Below, piece after piece: positions 4,733 through 16,710 of a DNA stretch of 34,587 nt (positions are counted from its first letter, which is position 1; every line of letters begins with the position of its first letter). The position numbers and the translations under genes are program-made. The DNA is from Actinomycetales bacterium (GTDB lineage: Bacteria > Actinomycetota > Actinomycetes > Actinomycetales > Kineosporiaceae). The stretch is taken from positions 1 through 34,587 of the forward strand of contig JAAYAH010000246.1 in NCBI GenBank assembly GCA_012719445.1, written 5' to 3'. Under the pieces are notes generated by a model. The model made no database searches, had not been told where the DNA came from, and saw nothing but the letters and a program-made list of their open reading frames with translations.

Positions 4733-6511
4733 GTGGGTGAAGGTGTTCAAGGGCTTCGGATGGTGGTCGAGGCCGCCGTGTCTGGGGCTCTGGATCGGGT
4801 GGTCCCGGCGGAGTTCGCAGGTGCGGATCCCGTCGTGCGACGATCCGAGCACGCCGACTTCCAGGCCAACGCGGCCCTGGCCCAGGCCAAGCGGATCGGA
4901 TCCTCCCCACGCGAGCTGGCCGGACAGCTCTTGGCGGCCATGGATGCTCCCGAGATGTTCGCGGATGCGGCGGTGTCCGGTCCGGGGTTCGTCAACCTCA
5001 CCCTGGCCGATGCCGCGATCTGGGGTCAGGTGGCCGAACGGGCCGGTGACGCGCGGCTGGGAGCGGGGCTTCCGGAGGCGGGCCGCCGTACGGTGATCGA
5101 CTACTCGGCGCCGAACATCGCCAAGGAGATGCACGTCGGGCACCTGCGCACCACGATCATCGGCGACGCTCTGGCCCGCATCCTCGGGTTCCTCGGTGCC
5201 GATGTGATCCGCCAGAACCACCTCGGGGACTGGGGAACCCAGTTCGGCATGCTCATCCAGTACCTCGACGAGCACCCCGAGGCCCACTGGCGCCAACAGG
5301 AACTGTCCGGGCAGGACGCTACGGCGTCCATGTCCACTCTGGACACCCTGTACCGCGCAGCGCGCGCTCAGTTCGACACCGATGAGGGGTTCGTCGAGAG
5401 GGCCCGATCCCGGGTGGTGGCCCTGCAGGCCGGGGACACGGCGACCCTGGCCACCTGGCGGGAACTGGTCGCGCAGTCCCAGCAGGCGTTCCAGGCCATC
5501 TACTCCCGCCTCGGGGTGCTGCTCGCACCCGAGGACGCCGCCGGGGAGTCCACCTACAACCCCTACCTGGCCGAGGTGGTCGAGGAGCTGCTGGCCACCG
5601 GAGTGGCGGTGGAGAGCGATGGGGCGGTGTGCGTGTTCTTCGACGACATCATCGGCCCGCATGGTGCCCCGGTGCCGTTGATCGTGCGCAAGAGCGACGG
5701 CGGGTACGGGTACGCCACCACCGACCTGGCCACCATCCGGTACCGGGTGAGGGAGTTGAAGGCCGAGCGGATTCTGTACGTGGTCGACGCTCGGCAGGCC
5801 CAGCACTTCCAGATGGTCTTCGCCACCGCCCGTCGCGCCGGCTGGCTCGGCGAGGACGTCGAGGCCGTGCACGTGCCGTTCGGGACGGTCCTCGGTCCGG
5901 ACGGACGGCCGTTCAAGACCCGCTCGGGGGGCACCGTGCGCCTGGGTGACCTGCTGGACGCCGCGGTCGACCGCGCCCGGGCAGTGGTGACCGAGAAGGA
6001 CCCCGACCTGGACCCGCAGGTCCTGGACCAGGTAGTGCAGGCCGCCGGGATCGGGGCGGTGAAGTACGCCGACCTGTCCAACTCCCGGATCAAGGATTAC
6101 GTCTTCGACGTCGAGCGGATGGTCTCCTTCACCGGCGACACCGGGGTGTACCTGCAGTATGCCCACACCCGGATACGGTCCATCCTGCGCCGCCTTCCCG
6201 CCGAGCAGGTCGAGCACGCCACGGTCGACGTCACCGTGGCATTGCGACCGGCCGAGCGGGCCCTGGCGTTGCTGCTGGACGAGTTCGCCCAGGTCCTGGC
6301 CGAGGTCGCGGCGACGTTGGAGCCGCACCGGCTGTGCACCTACCTGTTCGCTCTGGCCAAGGCGTTCACCGACTTCTACGACACCTGCCCCGTGGTCAAG
6401 GCCGACACCGACAGCGAGCGCGGTAACCGCATCGTGCTGTGCCGTCTGGCCGGGGACACCCTCGCCCAGGGCCTAGGGCTGCTCGGCATCACCGCCCCTG
6501 CTCGCATGTGA
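4733..6511 (+). CDS. argS: Arginyl-tRNA synthetase, complete (HVGH type)
   Basis: Class I arginyl-tRNA synthetase, which charges tRNA-Arg with arginine using ATP. GTG 4733 is chosen because AGGAGG (4718-4723) lies 9 bases upstream, giving 592 residues, a normal family length. An N-terminal ArgRS domain (about 1-110) is followed by the catalytic core with YSAPNIAKEMHVGHLRTT; HVGH (residues 134-137) is the HIGH signature. FKTRSG (394-399) stands in the KMSKS position; many bacterial ArgRS lack the canonical lysine. The C-terminal helical DALR tRNA-binding domain includes YLQYAHTRIRS and FTDFYDTCPV. Many actinobacterial housekeeping ArgRS instead carry an 'ANPTGPxHxGG'-type signature, so this form, in an accessory neighbourhood, is likely a second copy (inference). 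It is monocistronic with its own terminator and lies beside an operon that encodes another ArgRS-like protein. Confidence 0.95.
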   Translation: MGEGVQGLRMVVEAAVSGALDRVVPAEFAGADPVVRRSEHADFQANAALAQAKRIGSSPRELAGQLLAAMDAPEMFADAAVSGPGFVNLTLADAAIWGQVAERAGDARLGAGLPEAGRRTVIDYSAPNIAKEMHVGHLRTTIIGDALARILGFLGADVIRQNHLGDWGTQFGMLIQYLDEHPEAHWRQQELSGQDATASMSTLDTLYRAARAQFDTDEGFVERARSRVVALQAGDTATLATWRELVAQSQQAFQAIYSRLGVLLAPEDAAGESTYNPYLAEVVEELLATGVAVESDGAVCVFFDDIIGPHGAPVPLIVRKSDGGYGYATTDLATIRYRVRELKAERILYVVDARQAQHFQMVFATARRAGWLGEDVEAVHVPFGTVLGPDGRPFKTRSGGTVRLGDLLDAAVDRARAVVTEKDPDLDPQVLDQVVQAAGIGAVKYADLSNSRIKDYVFDVERMVSFTGDTGVYLQYAHTRIRSILRRLPAEQVEHATVDVTVALRPAERALALLLDEFAQVLAEVAATLEPHRLCTYLFALAKAFTDFYDTCPVVKADTDSERGNRIVLCRLAGDTLAQGLGLLGITAPARM

Positions 6512-6649: not shown

Positions 6650-8182
6650 TCATCCGACCGCGGTGTTGAGCTGTTCCAGCAGGGTTCGCGCCGGGCCAGC
6701 TTCGGCGTGGGGAGCCAGGCTCGCCTTCAGCTCCTTCAGGGCCTGGGTGGTGCGCAGGGAGTCCACGTCCCGGGCGAGGAGAACGGCCTGGGTTCCTGCG
6801 GCGCAGGCGCCGTCCAGTTCACACTGGGCGAGGTGGGCCTGGGCCAGGGCGACGCTGCTCAGTGCCCCACGGCGGGCGCGCTTCTGGGCGAGGCTGGAGT
6901 CGATGGACTGCTTCGCGAAGTCGATCGCCCGGGTGGTGTCGCCGAGCTGGACCAGGGTGTTCGCGATCTCCCCGGCGACGTAGGCGTGGTCGATGAACCG
7001 CATCTCGGGTGGTTCGTCGTCGGTGACGACCGAGCGCAGCGCGGTCTCGGCGCGGTGGATCGCGTGGGCCGAGGCGCGGGCATCGCCGGTGACGGCGAGG
7101 GAGCGGGCTTCAAGGACGGCCAGGTCGGCGAGCATCGCGTTGGAGGCTCCTCGCAGGGCGGCCTGCCCGGTCCGGGCCAGTTGGACGCCCTCGTCAGAGT
7201 GCCCCAGGGTCGTGGCGAGATGGCTCAGGGTGGCCAGGGTGTGGGCACCCAGGACCGGGTTCGCGGACTCCTTACTGAAGTTGAGCGCCTGGATCAGGTA
7301 CCTCTCGGCGAGCCCGTACTCGCCGACGTCGTAACTCATCCATCCCAGGAGTTGGGACTGTTCGCCAGCCAGGTCGAACAACGCCCGGCGGGTGGTCTCA
7401 TCTGTCTGGGTGCGCAGCAGCGGCAGGACGGTGCTGCTGAGGTACTGCGCCAGCGCCTGGCGGCCGTGGCCGCCGCCGAGTTGTGCGTCGGCCTCGGCGA
7501 ACATGTTCACCACGTTGCGGATCTGTTCGAGGTTCGCCTTGCTCACGTGGCCGCCTCCCTTGGCAGGGCCGGGGCCGTCCAGGGCCGCCAGCAGCCAGTC
7601 CCGGGTCGGGCCGTGCAGCATGGCGACCATGAACGGCAGGGTCGTCACCAGGTCTCGTCGGTACACGTCGTCCTCCACCATGTCACCGAAGACGTCGAGA
7701 GTGGCCGGGACCGACGCCGCGTCCGCCGGCGAGGTCCCGTCCGAGGTCGAGTTCGCCACGGGGCGTCTGTGATCCGTGGGGATTGAGCTCGGGGCGAGCG
7801 GGATGGGCGCAAGAGCACCGGTGGGCTCCGGTGGGCTGGCCTCGTTCGAGGCTACGACGAGGTGCCGGTGGTCGTCGTCCAGTCCCCTGGCCGGGTCACG
7901 GGGGGCGATGCCCAGGCGGATGCGGGCCGTGTCGGGCAGGTTGAGACCGTCGGCGACTCGGTGCAGAACATCGATGTTGGTGACGCGGGTGGAGCTGTTC
8001 ATCAGAGTGCTGATGCGGCTCTGGGCAATGCCGGTCGCGGCAGCCAACCGGTTCTGGCTCGCTCCGGCATAGCGTCTGGCCAGGCGAAACATGGCGCCGA
8101 CGTCCCTGGCGGCGAGCACGGCGGCGTTCTGTTCCCACACCTGGTCTGGCAGGCGGATCTGCTCGAACGCCGAGCCACTCAT
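6650..8182 (-). CDS. XRE-family transcriptional regulator with C-terminal TPR-like repeats
   Basis: This 510-residue cytoplasmic regulator has an N-terminal helix-turn-helix of the XRE type (about residues 28-85; SQNRLAAATGIAQSRISTLM is the HTH core), a Pro/Ala/Ser-rich linker (about 95-160), and a long alpha-helical array (about 180-505) with TPR-like spacing (GEYGLAERYLIQAL, LAVTGDARASAHAIHRAE, LGDTTRAIDFAKQSI). The ATG at 8182 has GAGGAGG six to seven bases upstream. Such large XRE-TPR proteins in streptomycetes and relatives are usually local regulators of specialised metabolism; TPR arrays often bind a peptide or small ligand. It is divergent from the five-gene operon starting at 8531 and shares a 348-base control region with it, so that operon is its most likely target. 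No motif links it to a named regulator. Confidence 0.9.
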   Translation of the reverse strand: MSGSAFEQIRLPDQVWEQNAAVLAARDVGAMFRLARRYAGASQNRLAAATGIAQSRISTLMNSSTRVTNIDVLHRVADGLNLPDTARIRLGIAPRDPARGLDDDHRHLVVASNEASPPEPTGALAPIPLAPSSIPTDHRRPVANSTSDGTSPADAASVPATLDVFGDMVEDDVYRRDLVTTLPFMVAMLHGPTRDWLLAALDGPGPAKGGGHVSKANLEQIRNVVNMFAEADAQLGGGHGRQALAQYLSSTVLPLLRTQTDETTRRALFDLAGEQSQLLGWMSYDVGEYGLAERYLIQALNFSKESANPVLGAHTLATLSHLATTLGHSDEGVQLARTGQAALRGASNAMLADLAVLEARSLAVTGDARASAHAIHRAETALRSVVTDDEPPEMRFIDHAYVAGEIANTLVQLGDTTRAIDFAKQSIDSSLAQKRARRGALSSVALAQAHLAQCELDGACAAGTQAVLLARDVDSLRTTQALKELKASLAPHAEAGPARTLLEQLNTAVG

Positions 8183-8530: not shown

Positions 8531-9676
8531 GTGAATTCGATGGTGTCACGGCTGGACGGGCTGGCGGAGGTGGTTCGTCAGCACCGCACGGAGCTGGTGG
8601 AGTGCCTGACGACAGTGGAGACGCGTTCCACCGCGGAGGTCGAGGTGACCTGGTTGTCCTCCGCCCTCGCGCCGCAGGAGCGGGCGGTGACGTGGATGGA
8701 CAGACGACGAGGCGTCGGCACGGTCTATTCCGCTCTGCCGGCGACCCTGCCCGTGTACTCGTTCCTGTTGTTCGCCCTCGCGCCCGCTCTGGTGGGCAAC
8801 CGCGTGGTCGCACGACCGGCGTCGGCATCGCGGCATTGTGTGGAGTTGCTGGCGGCGCTCGGTGCCCGGAGTGGGCTCGCCGTGCAGCTGGTGGAGGGAC
8901 CGTGGGCGTCCTTCGTCGACGGCGCCCGGAACGAGGCCGACGCAGTGGTCTTCTGCGGCAGTCGTGAACACGGTCAGGCGCTCGACGCCCTGCTCCCGGA
9001 ACAGGTGCGACTGGTCACCCAGGGCCCCGGAGTGTGCGCCTTGGTGGTCGCTGCCGATGCCGACGTCGTGTGTGCCGCCGAGGTGGCCGTGGCCACTCGG
9101 CTGTTCAACAGCTCGCAGGACTGCCTCGCCACCGAGCGGGTCTACGTTGCCGAGGAGATCGCGGGACCGTTCGTCGACGCCCTGGTGACCGTCGCCGCCC
9201 ACCTCAAGGTCGGCCCGAACGAGCGTGCTGATACCCGGGTCGGTCCGCTGCTGCTGCCCGAGGTCGCACCCCGGTGGATGGGGAGTCTGGAGAAGTACGG
9301 CGACGTCCTTCGCCCCGGTGTCCGGCACGCCGTGGACCTCTACGACCTGGCGGTGGTGCGGACCACCGCAGAGTCCCCGGTGGTCCTGGAGGAGACCTAC
9401 TGCCCGGTGTTGCCGCTCGTGGTGTACCGAAGCGATTCGCAACTGCGGGAGATGCTCGCGCTGGGGGACTTTGCCCTCGGCCTGACCGTCTTCGGATCCC
9501 CGCCCGCCTTCGGGACGCTGGACTTCGCCCACGTCGCGATCGGCCGACCCCTGTACGCCTTCGAGAACGCCTGGGCACCGTTCGGCGGCCACCGGTTCAC
9601 CACGTTGGTGCGCACCCCGACGACCCGACGATCCGGTCCGGTCCTGGTCCCCTACGTCCTGTCGGACCCGGCATGA
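8531..9676 (+). CDS. Aldehyde dehydrogenase-superfamily protein (short, atypical)
   Basis: This 381-residue protein is shorter than the usual 450-500 residues of NAD(P)-dependent aldehyde dehydrogenases. It keeps the catalytic thiol motif FNSSQDCLATERVYV, with Cys198 as nucleophile, the EETYCPVLP motif, and the late 'PFGG' segment (APFGGHRF). The general-base motif, normally 'E-L-G-G', reads TQGPG at 163-167, so the usual glutamate is missing. Enzymes without this base often act as acyl or aldehyde reductases or CoA-acylating forms, so the direction is uncertain; it could reduce an activated carboxyl group to an aldehyde for the next gene's dehydrogenase. GTG 8531 is preceded by GGGGAGG at 7 bases. 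The TGA overlaps the ATG of the following gene (ATGA). It is the first gene of the operon, presumably under the XRE regulator. Confidence 0.87.
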   Translation: MNSMVSRLDGLAEVVRQHRTELVECLTTVETRSTAEVEVTWLSSALAPQERAVTWMDRRRGVGTVYSALPATLPVYSFLLFALAPALVGNRVVARPASASRHCVELLAALGARSGLAVQLVEGPWASFVDGARNEADAVVFCGSREHGQALDALLPEQVRLVTQGPGVCALVVAADADVVCAAEVAVATRLFNSSQDCLATERVYVAEEIAGPFVDALVTVAAHLKVGPNERADTRVGPLLLPEVAPRWMGSLEKYGDVLRPGVRHAVDLYDLAVVRTTAESPVVLEETYCPVLPLVVYRSDSQLREMLALGDFALGLTVFGSPPAFGTLDFAHVAIGRPLYAFENAWAPFGGHRFTTLVRTPTTRRSGPVLVPYVLSDPA

Positions 9677-10650
9677 GAGCCACAACCCCCGAGGTCACCT
9701 GGACCACCGCAGTCCCGTCGTTGCTCGGCGCGACGGCCCTGGTCGTGACCTCCCCGCAGGCCCGCACGGCCGCCGAGACCGCCGGGATGCGTCTGGGCAC
9801 ACACCGGATCACCAACGTCGCCGGCGCCTCGACGGCTGACCTGTCGGGAGTCCAGCAGGTGGTGGCGGTCGGCGGCGGGGCGGTCACCGACGCGGCGAAG
9901 ATTGTCGCCTTCGACGCGGGACTGCCGTTGACCGTCGTCCCCACCGTGCTGTCGACCGACGCGCCGTTCTCCACCGTGGCCGCCGTCCGACGGGGCGACG
10001 TCGTGACCTACGTCGACACCGGCGCCGCCGACCAGGTGCAGCTGTGCTCGCAGGTGCTCCGGCACGCCCCCTGGGTCTCGCACCTGTACGGGCTGGGCGA
10101 TCTCCTCGCGATCGAGTCCGCCACCCGCGACTGGCGCGCACGGCTCCCAGACGGCATCTCGGCGGTGCGTGAAGCGGCGCGAGCCCTCGTCACCACGGCG
10201 TTGGACCAGGCCGCCTTGTGGCGGGAGCCCTCCCAGCCCGGGTGTGAACTGCTGGTGGAACTGCTGCGCGCCAAGGTCGCCCTCGGCCTGACGGCCGGCC
10301 ACCCGTGGGCAGAGGAAGGCACCGAGCACTACCTGGCCTACCTCCTGGAACCCCTACTACCCCGTCCCGTCTGGCACGGACAACTGCTGCTGGCTTGCCT
10401 TCCGGTGTGCGCGGTCCTGCAGGACTGGGACACCCGCACCGTGGGGTCCTTCCGTCGCTTCCTGAGCACCCTGCCGGGACTCGCCCCCGCCGGTGTCGAC
10501 CTGCTGCCGCCCCCGACCCTGCGCACAGCCCTGGCCCGGCTGCCGAAGTACTGCCGCCGGCACCACCTGGACAACACCCTCTTGGACGACGCGCACCTCA
10601 CCAACGAGCTACTCCAGCACGCCACGGACGCCTGGGAGCGTGGCTGGTGA
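9673..10650 (+). CDS. Iron-containing/glycerol-1-phosphate dehydrogenase-like oxidoreductase
   Basis: This 325-residue protein belongs to the dehydroquinate synthase/Fe-ADH/G1PDH fold. VVAVGGGAVTDAAK (64-76) is the glycine-rich NAD-binding motif. The metal ligands of the G1PDH type are all present: Asp143 in GLGDLLAIESA, His219 in EEGTEHYLAYLLE, and His235 in VWHGQLLL. It should reduce a ketone or aldehyde, or oxidise the alcohol, with NAD(P)H. The start ATG 9673 overlaps the aldehyde dehydrogenase stop and its own TGA overlaps the GTG of the ArgRS-like gene, so all are coupled. With the upstream aldehyde dehydrogenase it would interconvert acid, aldehyde and alcohol. A lipid (ether-lipid glycerol phosphate) role is possible from the family but not supported by any neighbour. 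Confidence 0.88.
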   Translation: MRATTPEVTWTTAVPSLLGATALVVTSPQARTAAETAGMRLGTHRITNVAGASTADLSGVQQVVAVGGGAVTDAAKIVAFDAGLPLTVVPTVLSTDAPFSTVAAVRRGDVVTYVDTGAADQVQLCSQVLRHAPWVSHLYGLGDLLAIESATRDWRARLPDGISAVREAARALVTTALDQAALWREPSQPGCELLVELLRAKVALGLTAGHPWAEEGTEHYLAYLLEPLLPRPVWHGQLLLACLPVCAVLQDWDTRTVGSFRRFLSTLPGLAPAGVDLLPPPTLRTALARLPKYCRRHHLDNTLLDDAHLTNELLQHATDAWERGW

Positions 10651-12137
10651 CCCTCAGCGCCCGCGATCACTCGATGTCGTTCAACCCCTTCCTCCAGGAT
10701 CTCCACCTGCCGATCCCCGGGCCGGTGTACTGGGCACCCGGCCGCCACCTGCTCTGGTACGACCCCCACGGGCACCGCTCGACCCGTCGGCTGGATCCCG
10801 CGGAGGTGTCCTCCTGGTGCGCCGACCGGGATCCGAGCGTGCTGTGGGAGCAGTGGTCCCAGCTGCTGGCCGGGCACCGGTTCCTGGTGGAACACACCAG
10901 CGTCAACCCCGTCCACCCCCTGCACGCCGGATCCCTGCGCGGGACGGTGCTGGGCGGCGCCATCACCGGGCTACTGCGCTCCGCCGGAGCCGACGTGGAC
11001 GTCCGCTACTTCGTCAACGACCAGGGCCGCCAGGTCACCTACCTACGCCGCATCCTCCCCGAGGTCGACTGGCACACCATCCCCACCGGCCTTCGACCCG
11101 ACGAGGCCGTCGGCATCCTGTACGCCCTGGCGAACATGCGCGAAGCCGCCCGTCACACCGACATCGCCCGGCTCGTGGGCGAACACCCCTGGCTCCGCTC
11201 CGCCGTGGCCACCAGCGCGCCCTTACCGACCACAGTCCCGGAAGACGACCTGGGGGTGGTCAAGACCATGGTCGACTGCGCCGCCCAGGATCTGCACCTA
11301 CTCGGGGCCGATGCCGACTCCTACGACTACGAGAGCCAGCTGCCCGACGACACCGGCGCGCTGGTGCTGGAGCTGGCCCATCGCTTCGCCACCGTCGCCG
11401 TCAACGGCACCCGGTGCCTGAACCGCACTGACGGACTGGTCCCGCTCCAACGCCCCGACGGGACGAGCCTGTACTTCACCCGGGACGTGGCCAACACCCG
11501 CGCCCGCCTGTACACCGGACGTCGGCTCCTGCACGTCATCGGCGACGACCAGGTACTCCTCCAACGGGCCCTTCGGGACACGGTGCCCGAGGCCGACCTC
11601 GAACACATCGCCTTCGGTGTCGTCACCCACCAGGGTCGGAAGTTCTCCGCCCGACAGCACCGGCTCCTGACCATCCCCGACATCCAGCACCACCAGGGCC
11701 CGGCTGGGGTCTGGGCCCTCGCCCTGGCGATCCTCCTGCGGCGCCGTACGGTCCCGATCGAGTTGACCGTTCTCGACACCGCTCATCCGCTGGACATCGT
11801 GCTCACCGCGCGCACCACCGCGCAGTCCGCCCTGGAGAGACTTCCCACGCTCCAACCGACCGACCCCGCCTGGTGGCCTCTGGTCCAGGCGATGCTCCAG
11901 GCTCCCGGCATTCTCCAGCGGGCGCTGCGGTCCCGGACTCCGCATGCCAGCGCCGGACTGCTGGTCGAGCTGTCCGTGCGCTACCTGCGTGCCGCCCGTC
12001 ACCACGACCTCCCGCAGTGGCTGCGCACCTGGTTCCTGGGCACCCAGTCTCGTCTCGCGGCCGTCCACGGACTGCGACCGGATGCCCACCTCGACCTCTC
12101 ACCAGATCTCACCCGATCGAACCGGAGAACGGCATGA
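10647..12137 (+). CDS. Divergent arginyl-tRNA synthetase-like protein
   Basis: This 496-residue class I synthetase paralogue shows an ArgRS core resembling the archaeal-type form: VEHTSVNPVHPLHAGSLRG (81-99), then YFVNDQGRQVTYL. The HIGH signature reads HAGS (93-96): first His and Gly kept, last His replaced by Ser. KFSAR (332-336) keeps a lysine at the KMSKS position, in GRKFSARQH. A helical DALR-like C-terminus (about 395-480) is present. The N-terminal about 75 residues do not look like the canonical ArgRS tRNA-recognition domain. It may adenylate arginine or a related acid and pass it to a non-tRNA acceptor, or deliver it from tRNA; this is inference. GTG 10647 overlaps the previous stop (GTGA), with a gggag site 10 bases upstream; ATG 10674 is an alternative. 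The stop overlaps the next ATG. Confidence 0.88.
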   Translation: MTLSARDHSMSFNPFLQDLHLPIPGPVYWAPGRHLLWYDPHGHRSTRRLDPAEVSSWCADRDPSVLWEQWSQLLAGHRFLVEHTSVNPVHPLHAGSLRGTVLGGAITGLLRSAGADVDVRYFVNDQGRQVTYLRRILPEVDWHTIPTGLRPDEAVGILYALANMREAARHTDIARLVGEHPWLRSAVATSAPLPTTVPEDDLGVVKTMVDCAAQDLHLLGADADSYDYESQLPDDTGALVLELAHRFATVAVNGTRCLNRTDGLVPLQRPDGTSLYFTRDVANTRARLYTGRRLLHVIGDDQVLLQRALRDTVPEADLEHIAFGVVTHQGRKFSARQHRLLTIPDIQHHQGPAGVWALALAILLRRRTVPIELTVLDTAHPLDIVLTARTTAQSALERLPTLQPTDPAWWPLVQAMLQAPGILQRALRSRTPHASAGLLVELSVRYLRAARHHDLPQWLRTWFLGTQSRLAAVHGLRPDAHLDLSPDLTRSNRRTA

Positions 12138-13054
12138 ACACCTTCGTCGTCCCCTTCAACATCGGCTACCTGTCCGCCGAGACCTATGAGCAGATGCTTC
12201 CTGCGCACTACTACGGCGGGATCGAGGACATCGACCTCGTGAGGGATCTCCTCGTTCGCACCCTGGGCGAGCCTCCCGCTACCCCGTCACTGCGGGTCCT
12301 GGATCTCGGCTGCGGAGCAGGTCGCATCACCCGAGTCCTGGCCCCCTACGCCCGCCAACTCCACGGCACCGACAAGAGCCCCGGGATGATCGATCGGTTC
12401 CGGACCGAGTTTCCCCACGCTCATGCTCTGTGCGCCGACACCGAGACGGTCCTGGCCGACCACCACGCCCGCGGCGAACGGTACGACCTCATCGGCTCGT
12501 TCTGGTCCATGAGCTATCCACTGCTGGAGTGCTTCGAGGACACCACCGCCAACGGCGTCACCGTCACCAACGATCTCGGCACCGGGACCGACCGCGCCAG
12601 GCGCATCGTGCGTAACCTCGTGGAACTCCTCGCCCCCGGCGGTCACCTCGTCATGCTCTTCTTCGACGCCTACAGCACCGAGCAACAGCTCGTGACCCGC
12701 CTGTGGGAACGCGTCCGCCCCTTCCCCGGAACCGGACGCGACCACACCTGGAACCTGCTGCTGTCTGGACTCCGCGACGCCGAACTCCAGGGCCACGGAT
12801 CCTTGACCACCCAGCGACTGCCAGGCGTGGCCGTAGCCGATGATCCCGAAGCGGTCCGTCGGTGGTTCCTCATCGGTCACCTCAACGCCCTGCCCCGATT
12901 CCTCCACGACACCGACGTGATCGCCGAGATCGACGCCTTCGCCGCGCAGCACACCGCGCCTGACGGCCGAGTCCTGTTGCCCAGCGGGGTCAACGTGGTC
13001 CACTTCCACGCCACGACCGACGCCACCCGGCACCTCCCCGCTGCCCGGCCGTGA
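12134..13054 (+). CDS. Class I SAM-dependent methyltransferase
   Basis: This 306-residue enzyme has the Rossmann-fold methyltransferase core: motif I VLDLGCGAGRI (55-65), then an acidic second strand (LHGTDKSPGMI), and the post-motif strand LLAPGGHLVMLFFDAY near residue 170. The C-terminal 100 residues are family-unspecific and probably set substrate choice. It uses S-adenosylmethionine to methylate a small molecule (target unknown). ATG 12134 overlaps the ArgRS-like stop and its TGA overlaps the next GTG, so it is coupled to both. Within this operon it is most simply a tailoring enzyme. No membrane segment is present and nothing marks it as a DNA or rRNA methylase. Confidence 0.9.
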   Translation: MNTFVVPFNIGYLSAETYEQMLPAHYYGGIEDIDLVRDLLVRTLGEPPATPSLRVLDLGCGAGRITRVLAPYARQLHGTDKSPGMIDRFRTEFPHAHALCADTETVLADHHARGERYDLIGSFWSMSYPLLECFEDTTANGVTVTNDLGTGTDRARRIVRNLVELLAPGGHLVMLFFDAYSTEQQLVTRLWERVRPFPGTGRDHTWNLLLSGLRDAELQGHGSLTTQRLPGVAVADDPEAVRRWFLIGHLNALPRFLHDTDVIAEIDAFAAQHTAPDGRVLLPSGVNVVHFHATTDATRHLPAARP

Positions 13055-13866
13055 CCGTGCTCGACTCCGGACTGCTCACCGACGCGACGACGGTCGTGAA
13101 GGACAGCTTCGACGGGAAGGAATCCTTCTCCTGCCTGACCGGAGGCATCGTCTCCGGCACGGCCACCGGGACCAGCGACATCGACCTCGTCGTGGTCCTG
13201 CCCGCCCACATACCTCTGGCCGAGGCAATGAGATTTCGCGAGGCCTTCACCCGTCACTATGTCGACCTGCACCGACGCCACCACCGAACCCCCGACCTCG
13301 ATTGGCCCGGCGAAGTCCTCTACACCACCGACCTTGCCGCTGCCCTGGACGGTGCCGTCTTCCTCGACCACAGACCCGAGACGCCCTTGTCGCTGTGTCC
13401 ACCGGACCAGCCGTACCGGTACTGGATCAGCATGATCGCCACAGGTGTGGCGCTCACCCACCCCGCAGCCTTCGAGGACGCCGCCATCCGATGCGCCGCT
13501 GCTATCGCCAACCACCTCCTGACCCAGCTGGTGACCGGCTCCACATTCCGGACCTCGGTCCCGGGCCACGCCACCGCCTCACGCCGCTCGGTCATCGACG
13601 GACTCCTCCAGCGGGACTGGGGCCTGGCGTCGTCCCCTCCGCACCCGTCCAGGCTCGCGGTGGTCCACAGGCAGGTCCACGCCGCCGTTGTTCGCCTCGC
13701 CCACCAGGGGTCCGGTCACCTCACCCAATGGCGTGGCCAGCTATGCCCGGCCACGACCGTCCCGGCGTTGGAGCAATGCGCAGCGAACTGGCGCCGGATC
13801 GCCAGGAAGGCCATCGCCGAGCGAGCCCATGCACCCGAGCACTATGCGTCGACATCACCGCGATGA
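13051..13866 (+). CDS. Nucleotidyltransferase-fold protein
   Basis: This 271-residue protein carries the pol-beta-type nucleotidyltransferase signature GGIVSGTATGTSDIDLVVVL (31-50), with the metal-binding pair Asp43 and Asp45. A third acidic residue should lie near DLDWPGEVLY (about 88-97). The rest is helical, with late basic segments. Such enzymes transfer AMP or another NMP to a hydroxyl or amine; small-molecule (aminoglycoside-type) and protein targets are both known in the family. GTG 13051 overlaps the methyltransferase stop. It is the last gene of the five-gene chain and is followed by a strong hairpin at 14030-14072. It could add a nucleotidyl group as a biosynthetic or self-protecting step, or act on the ArgRS-like protein's substrate; the sequence alone does not decide. 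Confidence 0.86.
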   Translation: MTVLDSGLLTDATTVVKDSFDGKESFSCLTGGIVSGTATGTSDIDLVVVLPAHIPLAEAMRFREAFTRHYVDLHRRHHRTPDLDWPGEVLYTTDLAAALDGAVFLDHRPETPLSLCPPDQPYRYWISMIATGVALTHPAAFEDAAIRCAAAIANHLLTQLVTGSTFRTSVPGHATASRRSVIDGLLQRDWGLASSPPHPSRLAVVHRQVHAAVVRLAHQGSGHLTQWRGQLCPATTVPALEQCAANWRRIARKAIAERAHAPEHYASTSPR

Positions 13867-14137: not shown

Positions 14138-14719
14138 ATGACAGATCCGTCGCCCAGGAACGAGATCGGTCGCCATCTGCCGCCTGCGTTGTCTGCGATC
14201 CCCCCGGATCCCCAAGCGGATCTCGTGATCTCCAACCGTCCTGAGTCGGTACCGAGAGCCCGGGCCCACGTGAGATCGCTGCTTCGCCGGTGGGGTGTTC
14301 ACGACCACACCGTCGACGACGCCGAACTGCTCGTCAGCGAACTTGTGACCAACTCGGTTCATCACGCTCGCGGGCCGTTCATCACCGTCCGGGTGACCTA
14401 CGACGACAGCCGCGTGCGGTGCCAGGTCCGTGATAACGATCCCACCTCCCCCGACGAGCCTCACCTGCCGGAGCACGACCAGGAGACCGGAAGGGGCCTA
14501 TACCTGGTGCAGGCCATCGCCACCGCCTGGGGCACGCACCTCGACAGCGATGGCACGGTGGGGTACAAGGTGATCTGGTTCGATCTCGTCGATCCCTTCC
14601 AGGTCACCCCCTTACCCCGCCGCACCCGTCGTTGTTCCCCTCCCAGCCCCAGTTCGGCAGCGATCCCTGTCGATCCAGCGCTGCTGCATCGCGTCCTTGC
14701 CGGGTTGCGCCGCTCGTGA
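14138..14719 (+). CDS. RsbW-like ATP-binding regulatory protein
   Basis: This 193-residue protein has a histidine kinase-like ATPase (HATPase_c_2) fold as in RsbW/SpoIIAB anti-sigma factors. The N box reads ELLVSELVTNSVHHA (about 66-80); the G box is GRGLYLVQAIATAWG. Upstream, VPRARAHVRSLLRRWGV is the usual family opening helix. The C-terminal 30 residues are Pro/Ser/Arg-rich and disordered. ATG 14138 is chosen because the frame upstream has no family similarity and a gaagga site lies 11 bases before. These proteins are widespread in streptomycetes, where most bind partner regulators through ATP-dependent phosphorylation, but many have unknown targets. No anti-sigma antagonist or sigma-factor gene is adjacent. 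Confidence 0.87.
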   Translation: MTDPSPRNEIGRHLPPALSAIPPDPQADLVISNRPESVPRARAHVRSLLRRWGVHDHTVDDAELLVSELVTNSVHHARGPFITVRVTYDDSRVRCQVRDNDPTSPDEPHLPEHDQETGRGLYLVQAIATAWGTHLDSDGTVGYKVIWFDLVDPFQVTPLPRRTRRCSPPSPSSAAIPVDPALLHRVLAGLRRS

Positions 14720-14832
14720 CCGGCTACGGTGCGCACCGGGTCCCTTCACAGCGGGTCCGCCCGGACCTGCCGGTTGGCAGGCATCGTCCCCCCATCCCCG
14801 CGCCCTTCATCACCGTGACCAGGGAGCCCTCG

Positions 14833-15309
14833 ATGATGCTCGTCCCGCTTCGGTCGGAGCTGATCCCGCGGGTCATGGATCTCATGGCCCTCGGAGAGCC
14901 GTACATCACCATGCGCACCGCCTCGGACTACTGGCTCTACGCCACTCTGTTCTCCTCCACCTGCCCAGTGGCCGTGAACGAGGGTCGGGTGGTGGGCGCG
15001 ATTGTGGCCTTCCGCAGCCAGGACCACCCCGAACAGGTGTACATCCAGGACGTCGTGATCCACCCAGACCATCGCCGGAGGGGCCTGACCCGGGTACTGG
15101 TCACCGCTCTGCGCCACAGAGTCGAGGCGTGGGGGTGTACCCAGGTGTCTCTGACCTCCGAGCCGGACAACACCGCCGCCCACGCCACCTGGCTCACACT
15201 CGGGTTCACCAACCGGCCCGGCGACTTCATGGTCGACGACGTGCAGGTCATCAGCGACTACAAGGGGCCGGGCAAGGACCGCGCCGTCTACGACCTGCTC
15301 CTGGAGTGA
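14833..15309 (+). CDS. GNAT-family N-acetyltransferase
   Basis: This 158-residue protein is a GCN5-related acetyltransferase. The acetyl-CoA site is IQDVVIHPDHRRRGLTRVLV (residues about 74-93), matching 'Q/R-x-x-G-x-G/A' in a weakened form (RRRGLTR). Later QVSLTSEPDNTAAHATW is the family's beta5-alpha segment. The opening resembles diaminobutyrate/ectoine-type acetyltransferases, but the substrate is unknown. The second codon is also ATG; ATG 14833 has agggag 6 bases upstream. The gene is 113 bases after the RsbW-like gene. In a cluster built around a synthetase paralogue, an acetyltransferase could acetylate the product or protect the producer; this is inference. Confidence 0.88.
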   Translation: MMLVPLRSELIPRVMDLMALGEPYITMRTASDYWLYATLFSSTCPVAVNEGRVVGAIVAFRSQDHPEQVYIQDVVIHPDHRRRGLTRVLVTALRHRVEAWGCTQVSLTSEPDNTAAHATWLTLGFTNRPGDFMVDDVQVISDYKGPGKDRAVYDLLLE

Positions 15310-15449: not shown

Positions 15450-15633
15450 CCTGCGTCACCAGGCGCCCATCACTGTCTTGTCCGTCCGCCCGGCGGGTGC
15501 GTGCCGCCCTGCCCTGTCGAGAGTGAAGGACGGCTTGACCACGATGGCACGCTCCACGCGCCCCGGCACACCTACCTGCAGAAGGACCAGCTCCACCAGC
15601 CCGGTGGTCCCGACGGGACCGAGGAGCCCGGCC
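15450..15633 (+). ncRNA. Candidate bridge-RNA region of the IS110 element
   Basis: Recently studied IS110 elements express a structured RNA from their non-coding end that pairs with donor and target DNA. The left non-coding segment here contains GCCTG/CAGGC (15449-15464, 6-base loop) and GGTCCC/GGGACC (15606-15620, 3-base loop), plus a GC-rich palindromic stretch near 15487-15500. The RNA itself, its promoter and its boundaries are not proved; the call rests on position and hairpins. If the transposase starts at 15544 instead, the RNA would overlap the gene. Confidence 0.3.
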
Positions 15634-16710
15634 GTGGTCGCTGACCTGGCCGAGGAGCGGCAGGTCGTCGGCGGCGTCGACACGCACAAGGACACCCACA
15701 CCGCCGCGGTGATCGATGCCGCGGGCAGGATGCTGGGCCACGAGACCTTCCCCGCGACCGGGGCCGGCTATGCCCGGCTGCTGGAGTGGATGTGCGGGTT
15801 GGGGCGGGTGCTGCTGGTCGGGATCGAGGGCAGCGGCGTGTACGGGTCCGGGCTGGCCGCTCACCTGCGGGCCCAGGGTGTGGAGATGGTCGAGGTCGAC
15901 CGGCCCGACCGCAAGGCCCGCCGCTGGCAGGGCAAGTCCGACCCCCTCGACGCCGAGGCCGCCGCCCGGGCCGCGCTGGCCGCCCGCGCCACGGGCACCC
16001 CCAAGGACCGCGACGGCGCGGTGGAAGCGGTGCGGGTGCTGCGGGTGGCCCACCGCAGCGGCGTCGGCCAGCGCGCCGAGGCCCAGCGCCAGATCAAGGC
16101 CCTGATCGTCACCGCCCCCGAGGTGCTGCGCCAGCGACTGCGCGGCCTGAGCACCACGCAGCTGCTGGCCACCTGCGCCCGGCTGCGCCCCGACACCGAC
16201 CGCCTGCACGAGCCAGCCGAGGCCACCAAGCACGCCCTGCGCAGCCTGGCCCAGCGCCACGCCCAGCTCACCGAGGAGATCACCGCCCTGGACACCCGGC
16301 TCGCCGTGTTGGTCGAACAGATCAACCCGGCCCTGCTGCAGCTCAACGGCGTCGGGACCGACGTCGCCGGACAGCTGCTGGTCACCGCCGGAGGCAACCC
16401 CGAACGGGTCCGCTCCGAACCCGCGTTCGCGATGCTGTGCGGCGTCGCCCCGCTACCGGCCTCCTCCGGCAAGACCCGACGCCACCGCCTCAACCGCGGC
16501 GGCGACCGACAGGCCAACGCCGCCCTCTACCGGATCGTGCTCTGCCGGCTGCGCTGGGACCCCCGCACCCGCGCCTACGCCGCACGCCGCACCGGCGAAG
16601 GCCTGTCCAAGAAAGAGATCATTCGCTGCCTGAAACGTCTGATCGCCCGCGAGATCTACCACGTCCTGCAAGCCACAACGATCACCACGCCAGCTACCCA
16701 AGCCGCTTGA
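15634..16710 (+). CDS. IS110-family transposase
   Basis: GTG 15634 with GAGGAG (15621-15626) 7 bases upstream gives 358 residues; ATG 15544 would add 30. The RuvC-like DEDD half has GGVDTHKDTH (first Asp), GIEGSGVYG (Glu), and GKSDPLDAEAAAR (last Asp pair). The C-terminal Transposase_20 half has QLNGVGTDVAGQLLVTAGG, then PASSGKTRRH with the catalytic serine, and a late NAALYRIVLCRLRWD helix. All active-site residues are present and no frameshift is seen, so the enzyme is probably functional. It recombines element ends with short target sites, guided in this family by the element's RNA. The gene is alone on its element. Codon bias matches its neighbours. Confidence 0.95.
   Translation: MVADLAEERQVVGGVDTHKDTHTAAVIDAAGRMLGHETFPATGAGYARLLEWMCGLGRVLLVGIEGSGVYGSGLAAHLRAQGVEMVEVDRPDRKARRWQGKSDPLDAEAAARAALAARATGTPKDRDGAVEAVRVLRVAHRSGVGQRAEAQRQIKALIVTAPEVLRQRLRGLSTTQLLATCARLRPDTDRLHEPAEATKHALRSLAQRHAQLTEEITALDTRLAVLVEQINPALLQLNGVGTDVAGQLLVTAGGNPERVRSEPAFAMLCGVAPLPASSGKTRRHRLNRGGDRQANAALYRIVLCRLRWDPRTRAYAARRTGEGLSKKEIIRCLKRLIAREIYHVLQATTITTPATQAA

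What the first reader, a model, noticed from the sequence alone, without database searches (positions are those of the whole stretch)
8531..13866. Five-gene coupled operon built around an ArgRS paralogue: candidate new small-molecule pathway
Aldehyde dehydrogenase-like, G1PDH-like, ArgRS-like, methyltransferase and nucleotidyltransferase genes are chained by four consecutive 4-base start-stop overlaps (9673, 10647, 12134, 13051). Such strict coupling means the products work together. A synthetase paralogue with redox, methyl and nucleotidyl tailoring enzymes does not match a pathway I can name. The simplest model: the paralogue activates arginine or a similar acid, the redox pair changes its carboxyl or side chain, and the others tailor it.
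Basis: partly seen in the sequence, partly recalled or inferred. Interest (0 to 1): 0.87.

Follow-up and report, generated by a model that had tools for sequence, protein, structure and literature searches.

The report
Probable ArgRS-inhibitor biosynthesis gene cluster
Five tightly joined genes, together with a spare copy of the enzyme that loads arginine onto tRNA, look like a small cluster making an arginine-derived compound that may poison that same enzyme, with the spare copy as the maker's own protection.

Summary
In detail: five genes (8531-13866) joined by four 4-base overlaps. Amycolatopsis palatopharyngis has all five with all four overlaps; three loci of the genus Nocardia have the set without the G1PDH-like gene.

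All 21 distinct actinobacterial methyltransferase loci that I fetched also carry this nucleotidyltransferase and ArgRS type close by. They take two forms: ALDH + ArgRS paralogue (5 loci, window included) or one PLP decarboxylase in their place (16 loci).

The paralogue is a separate clade that keeps the arginine-pocket residues. The ALDH keeps its catalytic Cys but has Gln for the catalytic Glu in 5 of 5, as in acyl-reducing ALDHs (recalled). Best model: arginine is activated by the paralogue, reduced, then tailored; the product inhibits ArgRS; ArgRS2 is immunity. The chemistry is inferred. This ArgRS type is also common without the cluster (123 of 394 genomes), which weakens the immunity argument. 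Literature searches in open-licence PMC found no such pathway.

The parts
4760..6511 (+). argS2: complete second arginyl-tRNA synthetase (start uncertain, GTG 4733 or ATG 4760); proposed immunity copy and possible arginyl donor
   Evidence: TIGR00456 6.9e-141 and the three ArgRS Pfam domains. Own genome has another ArgRS type on contig C114, 30% identical. Close by in 21 of 21 distinct fetched cluster loci.
6650..8182 (-). HTH + TPR regulator of the NsdA family between argS2 and the operon; membership in the cluster likely but not shown
   Evidence: NCBIfam NsdA_fam_reg 1.1e-88; HTH regulators lie beside some decarboxylase-form loci, e.g. L129, L137, L146, L165.
8531..9676 (+). ALDH-like protein, proposed acyl reductase; catalytic Cys198 kept, catalytic Glu replaced by Gln164
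   Evidence: Aldedh 1.4e-28, profile match starting at position 104; alignment to 4v6h; C198 and Q164 identical in 5 of 5 loci.
9673..10650 (+). G1PDH/glycerol-dehydrogenase-like alcohol dehydrogenase, accessory (2 of 5 loci)
   Evidence: Fe-ADH_2 6e-11, PRK00843 4.5e-17, 3ce9 1.2e-10; found in window and L135 only.
10647..12137 (+). ArgRS paralogue; arginine-pocket residues and a KMSK-like stretch kept
   Evidence: PRK01611.3-3 2.4e-35, 122 bits against a cut-off of 399; residues and tree.
12134..13054 (+). Class I SAM-dependent methyltransferase, probably small-molecule
   Evidence: Methyltransf_25 5.4e-11; model mean pLDDT 75, VIA Z up to 16.4.
13051..13866 (+). Pol-beta-type nucleotidyltransferase with SDxD motif, proposed to attach a nucleotide
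   Evidence: NTP_transf_2 3.7e-5; S42, D43, D45, D82 and E88 invariant in the four sequences aligned.

Best explanation
A compact biosynthetic cluster for a small arginine-derived, probably nucleotidylated compound whose likely target is arginyl-tRNA synthetase. Proposed course: (1) the ArgRS paralogue binds arginine (supported by kept residues) and makes Arg-AMP (inferred). (2) The arginyl group passes to Cys198 of the ALDH-like protein, which lacks the usual catalytic Glu, and is reduced to the aldehyde rather than hydrolysed (inferred, by analogy with LuxE/LuxC and other acyl-reducing ALDHs, recalled). (3) Where present, the G1PDH-like enzyme reduces the aldehyde to argininol (inferred). 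(4) The methyltransferase and nucleotidyltransferase tailor it; with AMP as the group added, the product would resemble an aminoalkyl analogue of arginyl-adenylate (speculative). (5) The second ArgRS is the insensitive copy protecting the producer, and may also supply arginyl groups (inferred from precedents). In the sister form a PLP decarboxylase stands in place of steps 1-3, so both modules may serve to remove or reduce a carboxyl group before the same two tailoring steps (inferred).
For: Two forms share ArgRS2 + methyltransferase + nucleotidyltransferase in 21 of 21 distinct fetched loci; ALDH + paralogue (5 loci) and the decarboxylase (16 loci) occur together in none of these loci. E82, N87, H93, Y276, D280 and Q302, aligned to yeast ArgRS E148, N153, H159, Y347, D351 and Q375 (alignment; that these contact arginine is recalled), are identical in 5 of 5 paralogues; of the KMSK-like stretch, R336 is kept and position 332 is K or R. 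Ser in place of the second His of HxGH also occurs in 51 of the 117 other pattern loci (53 of 119 with the two paralogue loci), though the scan preselected S/T/R/C/W there. ALDH Cys/Gln pattern in 5 of 5. 10 of 11 cluster hosts tested have another ArgRS type elsewhere. Precedents for a second synthetase as immunity plus supply: ascamycin AcmD, albomycin AbmK (passages read).
Against: The same ArgRS type is in 123 of 394 class genomes, own included; 18 such loci picked away from the cluster show none of the other cluster genes in the stretches fetched. In G380, a cluster host, it seems to be the only ArgRS. Most loci were found through the methyltransferase or the paralogue, and L129 through ArgRS2, so those presences are partly by construction. 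None of the 20 window ORFs scanned with Pfam is a transporter (not every ORF was scanned). The top solved relatives of one decarboxylase are cysteine-sulfinate/acidic amino acid decarboxylases, and NCBIfam puts diaminobutyrate decarboxylase first for the two tested, not arginine. The nucleotidyltransferase model was unusable (mean pLDDT 40). The nucleotide, acceptor and product are unknown.
Confidence: 0.45

Rival explanations
1. The paralogue is an arginyl transferase: ArgRS2 makes Arg-tRNA and the paralogue moves the arginyl group onto an amine or nucleoside, as AcmF does with Ala-tRNA in ascamycin. The ALDH/ADH act on a different substrate.
For: A full synthetase plus a paralogue in one cluster matches AcmD/AcmF and AbmK/AbmF (passages read). 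A sub-threshold DALR (anticodon-binding) match remains in the paralogue (14.6 bits against 22.3).
Against: AcmF lost most residues for ATP binding and alanine activation, whereas the paralogue keeps the arginine pocket and a KMSK-like stretch. ALDH and paralogue travel together in 5 of 5 loci.
Confidence: 0.25
2. The cluster makes an arginine-derived compound for another purpose (signal, chelator or cofactor-like) and the second ArgRS only supplies charged or activated arginine.
For: Constant presence of ArgRS2 in 21 of 21 fetched loci fits a supply role too; AbmK has both roles. ArgRS2 is widespread without the cluster.
Against: The decarboxylase form keeps ArgRS2 although no enzyme recognised in it is known to use Arg-tRNA (inference). 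Sporadic distribution (methyltransferase in 5 of 394 class genomes, own included) fits a specialised metabolite.
Confidence: 0.2
3. A defence or tRNA-centred stress system: ArgRS2, a TadA-like protein and a nucleotidyltransferase replace or repair tRNA-Arg functions under attack.
For: A TadA-like gene lies beside the cluster in 4 of 5 window-form and 2 of 16 decarboxylase-form loci; TadA model E 2.1e-32 and 1.6e-32 for the two tested, below its cut-off (112 bits against 150).
Against: Of four TadA-like proteins read, three (L136, L144, L145) lack the His/Cys residues that bind zinc in TadA (role recalled); L135 keeps them. The window has no such gene beside the cluster. PADLOC gives no hit for seven of eight proteins and a partial match of the methyltransferase to mad2. 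Decarboxylase, ALDH and ADH are small-molecule enzymes.
Confidence: 0.07

Closest known systems
Ascamycin cluster (AcmD AlaRS + AcmF AlaRS-like transferase); passages of PMC12945691 read
   Same: Complete extra synthetase and a paralogue for the same amino acid in one cluster; the extra copy gives self-resistance and supply
   Different: AcmF lost ATP/activation residues, the ArgRS paralogue keeps its pocket; here ALDH/ADH, methyltransferase and nucleotidyltransferase; amino acid is arginine
Albomycin (AbmK SerRS2 + AbmF); passages of PMC9032320 read
   Same: Divergent second synthetase in the cluster, housekeeping copy elsewhere; the warhead resembles an aminoacyl-adenylate
   Different: Target SerRS; thionucleoside chemistry; siderophore carrier, of which no sign was seen here
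Microcin C (MccB/MccD/MccE); passages of PMC10491745 and PMC12250964 read
   Same: PLP decarboxylase + SAM enzyme + nucleotide transfer with a synthetase as target: the nearest set of parts to the decarboxylase form
   Different: No ThiF-type adenylyltransferase among the cluster proteins; a precursor peptide was not looked for; the nucleotidyltransferase is of another family
LuxC/LuxE fatty acid reductase and ProA-type acyl-reducing ALDHs (recalled)
   Same: Activating enzyme plus ALDH-fold reductase with nucleophilic Cys and no catalytic Glu
   Different: Activator here would be a tRNA-synthetase paralogue; the LuxC Pfam model gives only E 0.079
Bona fide ArgRS, nearest sequence family of the paralogue
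   Same: Catalytic region, arginine-pocket residues, KMSK-like stretch
   Different: Separate long-branch clade; 496-513 aa against 548 and 584 for the two ArgRS of the own genome; anticodon-domain match below threshold

Membership tests
Synthetase-inhibitor cluster with resistant second synthetase (albomycin/ascamycin kind) | A second, divergent synthetase gene inside or beside the cluster | tested here: met
   21 of 21 distinct fetched loci; 30% identity to the own C114 ArgRS. The same type is also common away from the cluster
Synthetase-inhibitor cluster with resistant second synthetase (albomycin/ascamycin kind) | Another (housekeeping) synthetase elsewhere in the genome | tested here: met
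   Met in the own genome and in 10 of 11 cluster hosts tested; G380 lacks a match; the other cluster hosts were not tested
Synthetase-inhibitor cluster with resistant second synthetase (albomycin/ascamycin kind) | Product inhibits the synthetase and the second copy is insensitive | not testable with these tools
   Needs purified product and enzymes
AcmF-type synthetase-like aminoacyl transferase | Loss of residues for ATP binding and amino acid activation | tested here: not met
   Arginine pocket identical in 5 of 5 and KMSK-like stretch kept; only these positions were checked
Microcin C family | ThiF-type adenylyltransferase (MccB) | tested here: not met
   No ThiF hit among the five proteins and ArgRS2
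Microcin C family | MccD-like aminocarboxypropyl transferase | tested here: inconclusive
   Sequence and fold comparisons of the methyltransferase neither show nor exclude it
Acyl-reducing (non-hydrolytic) ALDH | Catalytic Cys kept, catalytic Glu absent | tested here: met
   C198 and Q164 in 5 of 5, alignment; meaning of the pattern is recalled
Daptide-type RiPP | Daptide methyltransferase/dehydrogenase models above cut-off | tested here: not met
   41.4 bits against 175 and 16.5 against 300
ArgRS (translation enzyme) for the paralogue | ArgRS model above curated cut-off | tested here: not met
   122 bits against 399, 84.6 against 261.65, 57.9 against 460

The most novel reading that the evidence does not exclude
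A tRNA-synthetase paralogue and an ALDH-fold enzyme form a stand-alone amino acid reductase (Arg to argininal/argininol), whose product is nucleotidylated to a stable arginyl-adenylate mimic: the first natural inhibitor aimed at ArgRS. A decarboxylase-based sister pathway feeds the same tailoring enzymes, and the spread of this ArgRS type through Actinomycetes partly reflects resistance to such compounds.
Probability: 0.25. Interest if true: 0.88.

Novelty: new variant of a known kind. Interest (0 to 1): 0.7.

Why it matters
If right, it gives a small, clonable cluster for a compound against a synthetase for which no natural inhibitor turned up in the searches made here (open-licence PMC only), a new way to reduce an amino acid carboxyl group using a synthetase paralogue, and a pair of exchangeable modules in front of the same tailoring enzymes. 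It also makes testable why a second ArgRS type is scattered through Actinomycetes. Each step can be assayed with purified enzymes.

Tried and rejected
The peptide-pattern scan with the paralogue alone found no relative; since it also missed the Amycolatopsis and Nocardia operons found later, it is a weak negative. Plasmid and phage tblastn with the paralogue gave 31 and 10 records, none covering 80% of the query; the two plasmid hits read as ORFs, L004 and L005, are ordinary ArgRS. Apart from the own genome the paralogue was absent from samples of 13 family, 297 order and 394 class genomes (sets overlap, and the two larger searches scored only 5 and 3 candidates a genome); apart from A. palatopharyngis it was absent from 80 genomes of that genus and 235 of that family.

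I first took ArgRS2 to be specific to the cluster because it was in only 3 of 13 family genomes, one of which (G011) showed no cluster genes nearby; the class search then showed it to be widespread. The microcin C idea for methyltransferase + decarboxylase was not confirmed: MccD (5FCD) is not among the 19 PDB sequence hits of the methyltransferase profile nor in the 50 rows each of the two fold comparisons, which does not exclude it. Fold matches of the methyltransferase are broad (1117 Foldseek matches at E <= 0.001) and the top rows are tied. The daptide idea was dropped. A defence reading was checked with PADLOC. The nucleotidyltransferase model is unusable and was not searched. A GNAT gene at the right (ORF 14632-15309) was considered as an immunity acetyltransferase; it has no match in the 21 other fetched records searched, 20 of them distinct, so it was left out.
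Full report
What is there. Labels hold at family level: ALDH, iron-type alcohol dehydrogenase of the G1PDH/glycerol dehydrogenase group, ArgRS catalytic domain, class I methyltransferase, Pol-beta nucleotidyltransferase. Upstream, at about 4760-6511, lies a complete ArgRS (TIGR00456 6.9e-141), followed by an NsdA-family regulator on the other strand at 6650-8182. The own genome has a different ArgRS on contig C114.

Conservation. A direct peptide-pattern search found no relative, and apart from the own genome the paralogue was missing from the family, order and class samples. A degenerate motif scan, stopped at 119 rows, followed by tblastn, found two homologous operons: Amycolatopsis palatopharyngis DSM 44832 (L028, L135) and Nocardia sp. 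alder85J (L125, L136). The Amycolatopsis operon has all five genes and all four overlaps; the Nocardia one lacks the G1PDH-like gene. In both, this second ArgRS type lies directly before the ALDH gene; in the window the regulator lies between them.

Two forms. A methyltransferase profile matched 5 of 394 class genomes, own included, and 14 of 148 genomes of the genus of Nocardia sp. alder85J, that strain included. Tblastn of the plasmid collection gave two records, Nocardia farcinica NCTC11134 and a distant Exiguobacterium plasmid hit; the latter has no ArgRS2 or nucleotidyltransferase match in the stretch fetched and is not counted below. I fetched every other match, 22 loci with the window; L137 and L166 are the same N. 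farcinica record, so 21 are distinct. All 21 carry ArgRS2, methyltransferase and nucleotidyltransferase. Most were found through the methyltransferase, two through the paralogue and L129 through ArgRS2, so those presences are partly by construction; that of the nucleotidyltransferase is not. Five are the window form (window, L135, L136, L162, L163), with ALDH and paralogue in all five and the G1PDH-like gene in two. Sixteen have a Pyridoxal_deC protein instead (two tested with Pfam; the rest by tblastn). L164 has an intact-looking decarboxylase form beside short remnants resembling the nucleotidyltransferase and TadA-like genes of the window form. L144 and L147 look damaged in parts.

The ArgRS paralogue. 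In a FastTree of 41 sequences (midpoint root, supports not shown), 30 of them drawn at random from the pattern loci, the five paralogues form a separate long-branch clade. E82, N87, H93, Y276, D280 and Q302 are identical in all five and align with yeast ArgRS E148, N153, H159, Y347, D351 and Q375; that these yeast residues contact arginine is recalled. Ser replaces the second His of HxGH; Ser is also there in 51 of the 117 other pattern loci, but the scan preselected S, T, R, C or W at that codon. The protein scores far below the ArgRS cut-offs. The kept pocket argues for arginine or a close analogue as substrate.

The ALDH-like protein. Catalytic Cys198 is kept and the catalytic Glu of hydrolytic ALDHs is Gln164 in 5 of 5. 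ALDH-fold enzymes that reduce or transfer acyl groups rather than hydrolyse thioesters lack that Glu (recalled). With a probable arginine-activating partner always next to it, the simplest reading is carboxyl reduction of arginine.

The second ArgRS. It is close by in every fetched cluster locus, and 10 of 11 cluster hosts tested have another ArgRS elsewhere (G380 is the exception). In albomycin and ascamycin producers a second synthetase in the cluster gives self-resistance and supplies the aminoacyl group (passages read). Against a simple reading: this ArgRS type occurs in 123 of 394 class genomes, own included; 18 such loci picked from that list lack the other cluster genes in the stretches fetched; and in seven of 25 genomes tested no C114-type ArgRS was found. 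So ArgRS2 alone does not show that the product hits ArgRS.

The tailoring enzymes. The methyltransferase model (mean pLDDT 75) resembles many small-molecule methyltransferases: histamine methyltransferase Z 16.4 (rmsd 4.0, 251 aligned), HvrF Z 15.6 (4.0, 243), juvenile hormone acid methyltransferase Z 15.3 (3.9, 237); these are close to tied and show fold, not function. The nucleotidyltransferase keeps S42, D43, D45, D82 and E88 in the four sequences aligned; its model was unusable.

Mechanism and rivals. I favour activation of Arg by the paralogue, reduction by the ALDH-like protein, optional reduction to the alcohol, then methyl and nucleotidyl tailoring to a compound that could mimic arginyl-adenylate, with ArgRS2 as immunity. 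Steps after arginine recognition are inferred. The main rival is an AcmF-like arginyl transferase; the kept pocket and KMSK-like stretch speak against it, since AcmF lost most of its activation residues, but do not exclude it. The decarboxylase form is the best internal test: if its enzyme acts on arginine, both forms modify the arginine carboxyl; but its top relatives handle acidic amino acids and diaminobutyrate, which leaves this open.

Literature. Ten searches of open-licence PMC, six of them naming ArgRS and four on neighbouring topics, listed no description of such a cluster or of an ArgRS-directed natural product. I read passages of four papers: PMC10491745, PMC12250964, PMC12945691, PMC9032320; other listings were seen by title and abstract start only. 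Most subscription papers were not searchable, so novelty is provisional.

Noticed in passing
L135 8467-9096 (-), L136 17353-17877, L162 4533-5054 (-), L163 4883-5404 (-), L144 13926-14684, L145 12479-12973: A TadA-like gene (family of the tRNA-Arg A34 deaminase, recalled) lies beside the cluster in 6 of 21 loci, next to ArgRS2 in four and next to the decarboxylase end in L144 and L145; of four read, L136, L144 and L145 lack the zinc-ligand residues and L135 keeps them.
   Followed up: partly
L136 17867-19000, L162 3407-4513, L163 3674-4744: A phosphotriesterase-family gene (PF02126, 2e-45 for L136) sits next to the TadA-like gene in the three Nocardia-genus window-form loci.
   Followed up: no
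class sample of 394 genomes: Two divergent ArgRS types are scattered in Actinomycetes; in 7 of 25 genomes tested only the window's second type was found, suggesting replacement.
   Followed up: partly
L138 4736-8861 (Exiguobacterium alkaliphilum pE73): A distant relative of the methyltransferase (26%) is in a row with a ThiF adenylyltransferase, an AAA ATPase and an MFS transporter, a layout that recalls microcin C-type clusters.
   Followed up: partly
L164 14978-15403: Short remnants resembling the window-form nucleotidyltransferase and TadA-like genes beside a decarboxylase-form cluster, as if one form replaced the other.
   Followed up: no
window 15478-16710: IS110-family transposase to the right of the cluster (NF033542 3.7e-49), consistent with a mobile neighbourhood.
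   Followed up: no
window 12134-13054: The methyltransferase matches PADLOC mad2 over residues 26-185 (1.2e-16); probably generic methyltransferase similarity.
   Followed up: no
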